Both the position numbers and the translations under genes were made by a program. A model generated the notes under the pieces. That model was given only the letters and a program-made list of their open reading frames with translations, made no database searches and was not told where the DNA came from. From Streptomyces aquilus (GTDB lineage: Bacteria; Actinomycetota; Actinomycetes; Streptomycetales; Streptomycetaceae), in the NCBI RefSeq assembly GCF_003955715.1, contig NZ_CP034463.1, positions 5,332,001 through 5,396,000 of the forward strand: DNA of 64,000 nucleotides, in the 5' to 3' direction. This document shows, one piece after another, positions 34,806 through 38,074 of this stretch; position 1 is the first letter of the stretch, and each line of letters opens with the position of its first letter.

Positions 34806-36278
34806 TCAGGTCTGGGCCATGTCCACGAAGCGTGAGTAGTGGCCCTGGAAGGCGACCGTGATCGTCGCCGTCGGGCCGTTACGGTGCTTGCCCACGATGA
34901 TGTCCGCCTCGCCGGCGCGTGGTGACTCCTTCTCGTAGGCGTCCTCGCGGTGCAGGAGGATGACCATGTCGGCGTCCTGCTCGATGGAGCCGGACTCACG
35001 CAGGTCGGACACCTGAGGCTTCTTGTCCGTGCGCTGCTCGGGACCACGGTTCAGCTGCGAGAGCGCGATCACCGGGAGCTCCAGCTCCTTGGCCAGCAGC
35101 TTGAGGTTTCGCGACATGTCCGAGACCTCCTGCTGACGGCTCTCGGAGCGCTTGCCGGACTGCATCAGCTGGAGATAGTCGATGATCACGAGCTTGATGT
35201 CGTTGCGCTGTTTGAGCCGGCGGCACTTCGCGCGGATCTCCATCATCGACAGGTTCGGGGAGTCGTCGATGTAGAGCGGCGCCGCCGAGACCTCGGGCAT
35301 CCGGCGCGCCAGGCGCGTCCAGTCCTCGTCCGTCATCGTGCCGGACCGCATGTGGTGCAGGGCCACCCGCGCCTCGGCGGACAGCAGGCGCATCGCGATC
35401 TCGTTGCGCCCCATTTCGAGGGAGAAGATGACGCTCGGCAGGTTGTTCTTGATGGACGCCGCCCGGGCGAAGTCCAAGGCGAGCGTGGACTTACCCATGG
35501 CGGGACGGGCCGCGATGACGATCATCTGGCCGGGGTGCAGGCCGTTGGTGAGGGAGTCGAGGTCCGTGAAGCCGGTCGGCACACCGGTCATCTCACCGGT
35601 GCGGGAGCCGATCGCCTCGATCTCGTCGAGCGCGCCCTCCATGATGTCGCCGAGCGGCAGATAGTCCTCGCTGGTGCGCTGCTCGGTGACCGCGTAGATC
35701 TCGGCCTGGGCGCGGTTGACGATCTCGTCGACGTCGTCGTCGGCCGCGTATCCCATCTGGGTGATGCGTGTGCCGGCCTCCACCAGCCGTCGCAGCACCG
35801 CTCGTTCATGGACGATCTCCGCGTAGTACTCGGCGTTCGCCGCTGTCGGGACCGTCTGTACGAGGGTGTGCAGATACGATGCGCCGCCGACCTTGTTGAT
35901 CTCGCCGCGCTTGGTCAGCTCGGCAGCGATCGTGATGGGGTCGGCCGGCTCGCCCTTGGCGTAGACGTCGAGGATCGCCTGGAAGATCGTCTCGTGGGCC
36001 GGCTTGTAGAAGTCATGGCCCTTGATGACCTCGACGACATCGGCGATGGCGTCCTTCGACAGGAGCATGCCGCCGAGCACGGACTGCTCCGCGTCGAGAT
36101 CCTGCGGTGGCACGCGTTCGAAGGACGCGCCCCCGCCCTCCCATTCGCCGTTCTCCCGGCCGCGGTCGTGCTGTTCGTCGCGGCCCCGGCCCCCGTCGCC
36201 GCGTCGGCGCGAGGCAGGCAGGCGATCACTGGGACCGCTGTCGGCCCACGGATCGTCCAAGGGCTCGGAAATGCTCAC
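34806..36278 (-). CDS. dnaB: Replicative DNA helicase DnaB
   Basis: DnaB is the hexameric replicative helicase that unwinds DNA at the fork. The 490-residue protein has an N-terminal DnaB domain (VPPQDLDAEQSVLGGML), a RecA-like motor with Walker A ARPAMGKSTLALD near 257, Walker B VIIDYLQLM, and the H4 region LNRGPEQRTDKKPQVSDLRESG. It has a charged, disordered N-terminal leader of about 55 residues. GTG 36278 has GGAGGAGG upstream. No intein interrupts it. The intergenic DNA just upstream holds DnaA-box-like nonamers. Confidence 0.97.
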   Translation of the reverse strand: MSISEPLDDPWADSGPSDRLPASRRRGDGGRGRDEQHDRGRENGEWEGGGASFERVPPQDLDAEQSVLGGMLLSKDAIADVVEVIKGHDFYKPAHETIFQAILDVYAKGEPADPITIAAELTKRGEINKVGGASYLHTLVQTVPTAANAEYYAEIVHERAVLRRLVEAGTRITQMGYAADDDVDEIVNRAQAEIYAVTEQRTSEDYLPLGDIMEGALDEIEAIGSRTGEMTGVPTGFTDLDSLTNGLHPGQMIVIAARPAMGKSTLALDFARAASIKNNLPSVIFSLEMGRNEIAMRLLSAEARVALHHMRSGTMTDEDWTRLARRMPEVSAAPLYIDDSPNLSMMEIRAKCRRLKQRNDIKLVIIDYLQLMQSGKRSESRQQEVSDMSRNLKLLAKELELPVIALSQLNRGPEQRTDKKPQVSDLRESGSIEQDADMVILLHREDAYEKESPRAGEADIIVGKHRNGPTATITVAFQGHYSRFVDMAQT

Positions 36279-36459
36279 CGAGCCACCTCCTCCCGTCCGC
36301 CGAGCGGACCTCGCCGTGCCTCTCTTTCTACGGCACGGCACTGACAAATAAGAGGCCCAACTCCGTTTGCGGCGCGTCGGTTTTGTGATGGTTTTCGGGC
36401 CGACGGACGGAGCGGGCGCCGGACCACGGTAGGCCTGTCGGCACCGTCAGCCAATCTGG

Positions 36460-36548
36460 TTATCCACAGGCCATGTGGACGACGGCCCGGATGCTGTGGA
36501 GAACTCGGCGAAACCTGTGCACGACCCGGTGGACAGCCCTGTGAACAA
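36460..36548. promoter_or_regulatory. Cluster of DnaA-box-like nonamers
   Basis: Within 89 bp are TTATCCACA (36460-36468, the exact E. coli consensus), TGTGGACGA (36474-36482), TGTGGAGAA (36495-36503), TGTGCACGA (36516-36524) and TGTGAACAA (36540-36548), plus a weaker one at 36604. The last four are in the opposite orientation to the first and differ by one or two bases from TGTGGA(C/T)AA. It lies in the 458-bp non-coding region between dnaB and a MATE gene. Confidence 0.75.
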
Positions 36549-36699
36549 GCTCGCCCTTCTCTCGGAGGAACCGCTCTGACCTGCACACTTCCCGTCCACC
36601 GGCTGTGCAGAAGAAAAACTTTCCCAGTCGGACCAAGATCAGGCCGCACGGCGTCCGCAAGCGCACGGCACAAGACTTCGAGTAAGGGTCACTAATCAA

Positions 36700-36729
36700 T
36701 TGCATCTATTACCTGTGGACGATTAGATT
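36700..36729 (+). promoter_or_regulatory. Likely leaderless promoter of the MATE gene with a DnaA-like box
   Basis: TTGCAT (36700-36705) and TAGATT (36724-36729) have an 18-bp spacer, and the ATG follows at 36737, so the transcript would be nearly leaderless. TGTGGACGA at 36714-36722 lies in the spacer. Confidence 0.55.
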
Positions 36730-36736
36730 GGTGCTC

Positions 36737-38074
36737 ATGACACACGCTCCCGCGACCTCGCGCGCCGCACGGCGACAGCACGACCGAGAGATCGTCGCAC
36801 TGGCCGTCCCGGCCTTCGGCGCGCTCGTCGCCGAGCCTCTCTTCGTCATGGCGGACAGCGCGATCGTGGGCCACCTCGGCACCGCACAACTCGCCGGTCT
36901 GGGCGTCGCCTCGGCCCTCCTGACGACCGCGGTCAGCGTGTTCGTCTTCCTCGCCTACGCCACCACCGCGGCCGTCGCCCGGCGGGTCGGCGCCGACGAC
37001 CTTCAGGCCGCCATCCGTCAGGGCATGGACGGCATCTGGCTCGCCCTCCTGCTCGGCGCTGCGGTCATCGCCGTCGTGCTGCCCACGGCGCCCGGCCTGG
37101 TGGAGCTCTTCGGCGCCTCGGACACCGCCGCCCCGTACGCGACGACTTATCTGCGGATCTCGTCCCTCGGCATCCCGGCAATGCTCATCGTCCTCGCCGC
37201 GACCGGCGTCCTACGCGGCCTCCAGGACACGAAGACGCCCCTGTACGTCGCCATCGGTGGTTTCATCGCCAACGCGGCCCTCAACGCAGTCCTCGTCTAC
37301 GGAGCCGACCTCGGCATCGCCGGCTCCGCCTGGGGCACCGTGATCGCCCAGTGCGGGATGGCCGCCGTCTATCTGGTGGTGGTCGTGCGCGGGGCTCGTG
37401 CCCATGGGGCCTCCCTGCGTCCTGACGTGGTGGGCATCAGGGCCTCGGCCCAGGCCGGTGTCCCCCTGCTCGTCCGCACCCTCTCCCTCCGCGCGATCCT
37501 GATGATCGCCACAGCGGTGGCGGCCCGTCTCGGCGACGCGGACATCGCGGCGCATCAGATCATCCTGTCGCTGTGGAGCCTGCTCGCCTTCGCCCTGGAC
37601 GCGATCGCCATCGCGGGGCAGGCCATCATCGGCCGCTATCTCGGTGCGGGCGATGCCCAGGGCGCCCGCGAGGCATGCCGACGCATGGTGCAGTGGGGCA
37701 TCGCGGTCGGAGTCGTCCTCGGCCTGGCGGTGGTGCTGAGCCGGCCCGCGTTCCTGCCGCTGTTCACCAGCGACTCCACTGTGAAGGACGCCGCCCTGCC
37801 GACGCTGCTCGTCGTGGCACTCTCCCAACCGATCTGCGGGATCGTCTTCGTCCTGGACGGTGTGCTGATGGGTGCGGGCGACGGCCCGTACCTGGCCTGG
37901 GCGATGGTGCTGACCCTGGCGGTCTTCACCCCCGTGGCGCTGCTCGTCCCGACACTCGGCGGAGGTCTCACCGCTCTGTGGGGAGCCATGACGCTGATGA
38001 TGGCGGTCCGCATGCTGACGCTGTGGATGCGTGCCCGGTCGGGACGCTGGATCGTCACGGGAGCCACCCGCTGA
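36737..38074 (+). CDS. MATE-family (DinF-like) efflux transporter
   Basis: This 445-residue, 12-helix MATE exporter has the pattern AVPAFGALVAEPLFVMADSAIVGHLG at the N-terminus and GVLRGLQDTKTPLYVA, typical of the DinF subgroup. It exports cationic or lipophilic compounds in exchange for Na+ or H+. ATG 36737 lacks a ribosome site; a nearby promoter suggests leaderless translation. Directly after the stop are three parS-like palindromes. Confidence 0.93.
   Translation: MTHAPATSRAARRQHDREIVALAVPAFGALVAEPLFVMADSAIVGHLGTAQLAGLGVASALLTTAVSVFVFLAYATTAAVARRVGADDLQAAIRQGMDGIWLALLLGAAVIAVVLPTAPGLVELFGASDTAAPYATTYLRISSLGIPAMLIVLAATGVLRGLQDTKTPLYVAIGGFIANAALNAVLVYGADLGIAGSAWGTVIAQCGMAAVYLVVVVRGARAHGASLRPDVVGIRASAQAGVPLLVRTLSLRAILMIATAVAARLGDADIAAHQIILSLWSLLAFALDAIAIAGQAIIGRYLGAGDAQGAREACRRMVQWGIAVGVVLGLAVVLSRPAFLPLFTSDSTVKDAALPTLLVVALSQPICGIVFVLDGVLMGAGDGPYLAWAMVLTLAVFTPVALLVPTLGGGLTALWGAMTLMMAVRMLTLWMRARSGRWIVTGATR

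What the first reader, a model, noticed from the sequence alone, without database searches (positions are those of the whole stretch)
36460..36548. DnaA-box cluster outside oriC, upstream of dnaB
One exact TTATCCACA and four near-consensus TGTGGA-type nonamers lie within 89 bp of non-coding DNA, between the replicative helicase gene and a MATE gene. DnaA titration clusters outside oriC have been described in Streptomyces. Here the position would also allow DnaA to control dnaB supply.
Basis: partly seen in the sequence, partly recalled or inferred. Interest (0 to 1): 0.7.

Follow-up and report, generated by a model that had tools for sequence, protein, structure and literature searches.

The report
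DnaA-box array at helicase gene promoter
Just before the gene for the DNA-unwinding helicase, this Streptomyces carries an old, rigidly spaced row of likely docking sites for DnaA, the protein that starts chromosome copying, so the cell probably ties its supply of helicase to DnaA.

Summary
The cluster is real and larger than reported. Six DnaA boxes with at most one mismatch lie in 36460-36722 (0 of 2000 shuffles reach six), plus two weaker ones. It lies about 37 kb from oriC, one of three strong extra-oriC clusters within 90 kb of it. It is probably the counterpart of S. coelicolor cluster H24 (recalled; that paper is not held).

Its geometry is nearly frozen across Streptomycetaceae: box A to B is 14 bp in 128 of 129 sequences and A to the last box 254 bp in 105 of 129, while the stretch between F and H drifts to about 56% identity. 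A predicted dnaB -10 element sits 28-29 bp from box A in 129 of 150. Boxes also mark the dnaB upstream region in 20 of 20 other families of the class (68 boxes, 4.5 in shuffles). In mycobacteria DnaA binds upstream of dnaB (PMC7738170, passages).

Best reading: a DnaA operator for dnaB, probably activating, that also holds DnaA. The cluster belongs to a known kind; its class-wide spread, promoter register and a matching crgA module were not found in print in my searches.

The parts
36460..36468 (+). box A, exact TTATCCACA, just upstream of the predicted dnaB -35 (centre about -45)
   Evidence: identical in all 76 aligned sequences
36474..36482 (-). box B, TCGTCCACA, inverted partner of A at 14 bp (centre about -59)
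   Evidence: A-B offset 14 in 128 of 129 family sequences
36495..36503 (-). box C, TTCTCCACA
   Evidence: offset 35 from A in 128 of 129
36516..36524 (-). box D, TCGTGCACA, two mismatches
   Evidence: read; conserved columns
36528..36536 (-). box E, CTGTCCACC, two mismatches
   Evidence: read; partly conserved
36540..36548 (-). box F, TTGTTCACA; TTGTCCACA or TTATCCACA in many other genera
   Evidence: offset 80 from A in 117 of 129
36604..36612 (-). box G, TTCTGCACA
36714..36722 (-). box H, TCGTCCACA, inside the predicted MATE promoter spacer
   Evidence: offset 254 from A in 105 of 129
36449..36454 (-). predicted dnaB -35 element, TTGGCT
   Evidence: prediction; TTGGY at this place in 76 of 76 own and close Streptomyces, 50 of 59 other family members, 0 of 15 members of two other families of the order
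36426..36431 (-). predicted dnaB -10 element, TACCGT, 17-bp spacer; transcription start near 36419 and a leader of about 138 nt inferred
   Evidence: TASSGT 28 or 29 bp beyond box A in 129 of 150 sequences, 1.4% at random positions
36700..36705 (+). predicted MATE -35, TTGCAT (by eye)
   Evidence: mostly conserved among Streptomyces, much less across the family
36724..36729 (+). predicted MATE -10, TAGATT (by eye), 18-bp spacer containing box H; would give an almost leaderless ATG at 36737
   Evidence: conserved among Streptomyces
34806..36281 (-). dnaB, replicative DNA helicase; GTG start at 36281 inferred from the GGAGG before it
36737..38074 (+). MATE-family efflux transporter gene (start inferred; the open frame begins at 36728)

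Best explanation
The element is a DnaA operator array for dnaB. DnaA binds box A and its inverted partner B next to the -35 of the dnaB promoter and spreads over boxes C to F further upstream, so that dnaB transcription follows the level or nucleotide state of DnaA, most likely as activation. Helicase supply is thereby tied to initiation. Box H lies inside the predicted MATE promoter, so DnaA there would probably repress the transporter gene. The same array also holds several DnaA molecules close to oriC. Shown here: the boxes, their geometry, their conservation and their register with a predicted promoter. Shown by others: DnaA binding upstream of dnaB in mycobacteria. Inferred: binding in this species, the promoter itself, activation of dnaB and repression of the MATE gene.
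For: Excess over chance: 0 of 2000 shuffles reach six boxes. All 75 usable Streptomyces loci of the 80 fetched have at least five boxes. Offsets across Streptomycetaceae: A-B 14 in 128 of 129, A-C 35 in 128, A-F 80 in 117, A-H 254 in 105 of 129, while the 165 bp from F to H are 56% identical to the window at the median in 30 more distant sequences. Promoter register: TASSGT 28 or 29 bp after box A in 129 of 150, 1.4% at random positions. Two other families of the order: 15 of 15 regions of about 1.1 kb have at least five boxes. Class, one genome from each of 20 families: 68 boxes in 20 x 500 bp; 13 with the sequence reversed, 0.13 per 500 bp elsewhere in the same loci, 4.5 in shuffles. Mycobacterial DnaA binds upstream of dnaB in vitro (IDAP-seq), with the homologous region found by ChIP-seq in M. 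smegmatis, and one DnaA variant binds less there and under-expresses dnaB (PMC7738170, passages). S. coelicolor dnaB (SCO3911) is in the modelled regulon of HrdB, whose -10 has T at -7 and A at -11 (PMC6344877, passages), as in the -10 predicted here. In Caulobacter, dnaB has predicted DnaA boxes upstream and is in the DnaA regulon (PMC8203912, passage).
Against: No DnaA binding, transcript start or dnaB expression in response to DnaA was found for Streptomyces in anything I could read. The sign (activation) rests on one mycobacterial correlation. TASSGT is missing at the register in 11 of 76 own and close Streptomyces, 9 of 59 other family members and 1 of 15 order members, and the -35-like TTGGY is absent in all 15 of the latter. 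Six sequences have a rearranged array (L152, L153, L158, L172, L173, L174) and one was too short to judge (L159). The relatives are not independent samples; 75 of the 136 are close Streptomyces. By box count the dnaB upstream 500 bp is strictly the best window in 12 of 20 class loci, tied in 5 and lower in 3 (read). Outside the class the signal is weak: 24 boxes in 20 loci (7 reversed, 4.7 in shuffles), none in 10 of 20. Boxes far from the promoter (F to H) are not needed for simple activation.
Confidence: 0.62

Rival explanations
1. Titration or inactivation centre (datA-like): the array mainly holds DnaA close to oriC to limit re-initiation, and its place before dnaB is incidental.
For: It sits about 37 kb from oriC, in 400 kb that hold 27 of the genome's 111 exact TTNTCCACA sites where 4.3 are expected by length. 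Three papers say that S. coelicolor DnaA-box clusters repress untimely initiation (PMC4585315, PMC5742627, PMC10950094, passages). The sister cluster beside crgA lies between convergent gene ends in this genome, where promoter control is unlikely.
Against: Titration alone asks for neither fixed spacing nor a fixed distance to the dnaB promoter, nor attachment to dnaB across 20 families of the class.
Confidence: 0.22
2. Repressor array: DnaA bound to the array lowers dnaB (and MATE) transcription, a brake rather than an accelerator.
For: Box H lies between the predicted -35 and -10 of the MATE gene, and box A comes within 5 bp of the predicted dnaB -35. DnaA is known to act as either activator or repressor (PMC8203912, abstract as shown in the listing).
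Against: Boxes A to F lie upstream of the predicted dnaB promoter, not over it; the mycobacterial DnaA variant with less binding at dnaB makes less dnaB, not more (PMC7738170).
Confidence: 0.12
3. The nonamers are not DnaA sites; another protein or chance explains them.
For: No binding data in this species; short degenerate motifs.
Against: Shuffles, conservation, box counts across the class, and mycobacterial DnaA binding at the homologous place (PMC7738170).
Confidence: 0.04

Closest known systems
S. coelicolor origin-proximal DnaA-box clusters H24, D78, H69 (Smulczyk-Krawczyszyn et al. 2006, doi 10.1128/JB.00528-06; not held, content and names recalled)
   Same: Several DnaA boxes in short non-coding DNA within 100 kb of oriC. 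Three such clusters are found here (dnaB, pheA-serS, crgA-rhomboid), the same number as recalled.
   Different: The recalled account deals with titration and replication frequency; here the dnaB cluster keeps a fixed distance to a predicted dnaB promoter. That H24 is this locus is recalled and unchecked.
Mycobacterial DnaA binding regions Rv0057 (upstream of dnaB) and Rv0010c-Rv0011c (PMC7738170, passages read)
   Same: DnaA binds upstream of dnaB; the sampled class members, mycobacterium-like or not, have DnaA boxes there. The other site lies beside crgA (rv0011c, PMC3989709, table passage), where boxes are also found in this genome and in 28 of 30 class loci.
   Different: Different box arrangement; the MATE gene and the 254-bp geometry were seen only in Streptomycetaceae. 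That paper's text does not mention Streptomyces.
Caulobacter crescentus dnaB in the DnaA regulon (Hottes et al. 2005, via PMC8203912 passage)
   Same: DnaA boxes upstream of dnaB and dependence on DnaA.
   Different: A distant group; one predicted operator, no long rigid array described in the passage.
E. coli datA and B. subtilis DnaA-box clusters (via passages of PMC4585315, PMC5742627)
   Same: Origin-proximal DnaA-box clusters that can restrain initiation.
   Different: No IHF-type partner site or ATP-hydrolysis role was tested here; datA is not described there as an operator of dnaB.

Membership tests
Streptomyces origin-proximal DnaA-box clusters (H24/D78/H69 type) | several DnaA boxes within a few hundred bp, outside oriC | tested here: met
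Streptomyces origin-proximal DnaA-box clusters (H24/D78/H69 type) | in a short chromosome segment centred on oriC | tested here: met
   about 37 kb from oriC
Streptomyces origin-proximal DnaA-box clusters (H24/D78/H69 type) | same locus as H24 of S. coelicolor | tested here: inconclusive
   paper not held; text searches gave no confirmation; identity rests on recall
Streptomyces origin-proximal DnaA-box clusters (H24/D78/H69 type) | DnaA binding in vitro and effect on replication frequency | not testable with these tools
   needs bench work
DnaA-regulated promoter of dnaB | DnaA boxes at a fixed distance to a promoter of dnaB | tested here: met
   for a predicted promoter only: 129 of 150
DnaA-regulated promoter of dnaB | DnaA binding there | not testable with these tools
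   reported for mycobacteria (PMC7738170), not for Streptomyces
DnaA-regulated promoter of dnaB | dnaB transcription changes with DnaA | not testable with these tools
   one mycobacterial correlation (PMC7738170)
datA | stimulates hydrolysis of DnaA-bound ATP with an IHF-type partner | not testable with these tools
   biochemical property
chromosomal origin (oriC) | next to dnaA, longest box array | tested here: not met
   the origin-type array is at 5405 kb beside dnaA

The most novel reading that the evidence does not exclude
Actinomycetes carry an ancient pair of DnaA control centres flanking oriC: a helicase-gene switch at dnaB, built in Streptomycetaceae as one rigid 254-bp DnaA complex spanning the dnaB and MATE promoters, and a compact three-box module downstream of crgA that coincides with the mycobacterial Rv0010c-Rv0011c DnaA site, said by its finders to lack obvious counterparts. 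Together they would couple helicase supply, a cell-division locus and DnaA availability across the class.
Probability: 0.35. Interest if true: 0.72.

Novelty: new member of a known kind. Interest (0 to 1): 0.52.

Why it matters
How cells match replicative helicase supply to initiation seems little studied in actinomycetes (impression from the searches). A conserved DnaA array at a fixed distance from the dnaB promoter gives a precise, testable link between the initiator and its helicase. It also joins observations that I did not find compared: Streptomyces DnaA clusters, treated as titration sites, and mycobacterial DnaA peaks at dnaB and beside crgA.

Tried and rejected
Coding explanation: an open frame of 132 aa overlaps the array, but no frame is open in more than 50 of 105 family sequences; rejected. 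Structured RNA: no Rfam match in 36000-37000 at E up to 1. Second origin: the origin-type array is elsewhere, beside dnaA. All three extra-oriC clusters being class-wide: the pheA-serS cluster showed up only in the three Streptomycetaceae among 30 serS loci and 30 pheA loci, so that idea was dropped; the crgA one held.

Missteps: the only genome-contig scan was run with the neighbouring beta-lactamase/DUF7586 gene instead of dnaB; its flanks happened to include dnaB and the array. Of its 80 loci, 4 gave no DnaB match and 1 (L072) was misplaced, leaving 75. In one search box E was marked 2 bp off, so the mean of 0.989 quoted for box columns includes that slip. In one search the varying distance from box A to the DnaB match is partly due to matches that start at different residues of DnaB, so I do not use it as a measure of leader length.

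Full report
What was checked. The reported stretch lies in a chromosome of 10.39 Mb (window at 5332001-5396000). The 80 loci kept, run with a neighbouring gene, are all from records titled Streptomyces, so the window is taken to be Streptomyces. One exact TTATCCACA, one TTCTCCACA and two one-mismatch nonamers lie at 36460-36548, with two two-mismatch nonamers between them (read). Two more one-mismatch boxes follow at 36604 and 36714. Shuffling 36282-36728 gives a mean of 0.26 boxes and never six in 2000 tries. The neighbours are dnaB (minus strand) and a MATE transporter gene (plus strand), with rplI and ssb beyond.

Place in the genome. dnaA lies near 5403.7 kb and the densest box array, taken as oriC, begins at 5405.05 kb, so the cluster is about 37 kb away. 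The genome has 111 exact TTNTCCACA sites and 48 of the reversed pattern; 27 of the 111 lie in 5.20-5.60 Mb, where 4.3 are expected by length. Within those 400 kb the strongest clusters are oriC, a pheA-serS intergenic cluster, the dnaB cluster and a cluster between the ends of crgA and a rhomboid gene; the rest of the genome was not scanned for clusters. From memory, the S. coelicolor study of 2006 named three such clusters, H69, H24 and D78, and H24 is the cosmid that holds dnaB. The paper is not held, so this identity is likely but unchecked. Three later papers, seen in passages, describe S. coelicolor clusters as repressing untimely initiation.

Conservation. In 75 of the 80 Streptomyces loci (5 dropped, see Tried and rejected) at least five boxes are present in every one. 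Aligned with the window, box columns average 0.99 identity, columns between boxes 0.90, the stretch on the dnaB side 0.87 and the rest towards MATE 0.72. Adding 60 sequences from the family gave 136; 129 of them show boxes A and C. Offsets are A-B 14 in 128 of 129, A-C 35 in 128, A-F 80 in 117 and A-H 254 in 105. The seven left out are five members of two genera and one more sequence with a rearranged array, and one cut off by a contig end. The inverted A/B pair itself is still found in those six when two mismatches per box are allowed. For 30 more distant sequences with A-H of 254, the 165 bp from F to H are 56% identical to the window at the median (range 0.30-0.62). Rigid spacing in drifting sequence points to one nucleoprotein assembly rather than loose sinks. 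I have no full account of why the 174 bp from box F to box H should be kept to the base.

Promoter register. In the dnaB direction, box A is followed by TTGGCT, a 17-bp spacer and TACCGT in the window. TASSGT 28 or 29 bp after box A occurs in 65 of 76 own and close Streptomyces, 50 of 59 other family members and 14 of 15 members of two other families of the order, against 1.4% at random positions; the -35-like TTGGY occurs in 76 of 76, 50 of 59 and 0 of 15. This would put boxes A and B at about -45 and -59, with C, D, E and F following B at steps of 21, 21, 12 and 12 bp. S. coelicolor dnaB is in the modelled HrdB regulon, whose -10 has T at -7 and A at -11 and whose -35 is weak or missing in most promoters (PMC6344877, passages); the -10 predicted here fits. 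Box H lies in the 18-bp spacer of a MATE promoter predicted by eye, which suggests repression.

Wider relatives. In two other families of the order, 15 of 15 regions of about 1.1 kb have at least five boxes. All nine shown have the inverted pair at 14 bp; in the eight of one family the stronger box is the partner, not the promoter-side one as in the window. In 25 class members outside the order at least one box was present in 25 of 25 and at least three in 18 of 25. One genome from each of 20 class families, picked from the 79 genomes for contig length and overlapping those 25 in 14 genomes, gave 68 boxes in 20 x 500 bp upstream of the DnaB match, with at least one in 20 of 20; the same stretches reversed gave 13, the rest of the loci 0.13 per 500 bp, shuffles 4.5. 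By box count the dnaB upstream stretch is strictly best in 12 of 20 loci, tied in 5 and lower in 3 (read); by the looser word TCCMCAG it is strictly best in 15 of 20. A class-wide fixed offset was not shown: inverted pairs at 12-15 bp number nine among the 31 stretches. Outside the class, 20 genomes of 60 searched gave 24 boxes (7 reversed, 4.7 in shuffles) and none in 10 of 20, a weak signal.

Experimental anchor from others. In mycobacteria DnaA binds five regions in vitro, with homologous ChIP-seq peaks in M. smegmatis: oriC, rpmH-dnaA, Rv0057 (upstream of dnaB), Rv0010c-Rv0011c and Rv3843c-RVnc0040. One DnaA variant binds less at dnaB and under-expresses it; the authors see no obvious counterpart in other species for the last two sites (PMC7738170, passages). 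crgA is rv0011c (PMC3989709, table passage). Here 28 of 30 class loci (30 fetched of 39 genomes with a match; three of the 30 are Streptomycetaceae) have at least one DnaA box within 500 bp downstream of crgA, 87 boxes against 5.0 in shuffles and 0.2 per 500 bp elsewhere. An inverted pair at offset 10 or 11 occurs in 21 of 30 and a tandem pair at 12 or 13 in 23 of 30 (up to three mismatches per pair, no control run for the offsets). So the Rv0010c-Rv0011c site does seem to have counterparts across the class, Streptomyces included. The pheA-serS cluster was seen only in the three Streptomycetaceae among 30 serS and 30 pheA loci.

Mechanism. The most likely working is a DnaA operator for dnaB, probably activating, with DnaA storage as a by-product and repression of the MATE gene through box H as a side arm. 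Shown here: boxes, geometry, register with a predicted promoter, conservation. Shown by others in relatives: DnaA binding at dnaB. Inferred: binding here, sign, titration, MATE control. E. coli DnaA prefers pairs of boxes 2 or 3 bp apart (PMC11317965, abstract and passages); this fits the A/B pair only loosely, since those are 5 bp apart and inverted.

Novelty. DnaA-box clusters near oriC, one probably at this very locus, and DnaA binding upstream of dnaB are known. The rigid family-wide geometry, the fixed distance to the dnaB promoter, the class-wide spread and the crgA correspondence were not found with the ten text searches made, which cover only open-licence papers; the 2006 paper itself could not be read.

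Noticed in passing
L272-L301, first 150 bp downstream of crgA; in the window's genome 5444940-5445174, outside the window: A compact DnaA-box module (tandem 12/13 bp, then inverted 10/11 bp) sits just downstream of crgA in most sampled class members and matches the mycobacterial Rv0010c-Rv0011c DnaA site in place.
   Followed up: partly
for example L274, L275, L288, L294, L301, upstream of the boxes downstream of crgA: A palindrome of the form ACAC-NN-GTGT, often followed by ATTC, lies directly before the DnaA boxes in many class members but not in the window's genome (read); it may be a site for a partner protein.
   Followed up: no
window's genome 5318858-5319139 (pheA-serS intergenic), outside the window: A strong DnaA-box cluster, perhaps the counterpart of D78 (recalled), seen only in Streptomycetaceae in the samples taken.
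   Followed up: partly
window 36313-36339: An inverted repeat, GCCGTGCC-N11-GGCACGGC, mostly conserved in Streptomyces, in the predicted dnaB leader 32-58 nt before the start codon; no Rfam match.
   Followed up: no
window 36549-36713: Between boxes F and H the length is kept in most of the family although most bases drift; conserved islands include an A-rich stretch near 36608-36620.
   Followed up: partly
DnaB genes, for example G044, G150, G153: In many relatives the DnaB match is split within one long open frame, near residues 265 or 433 of the query, which looks like inteins.
   Followed up: no
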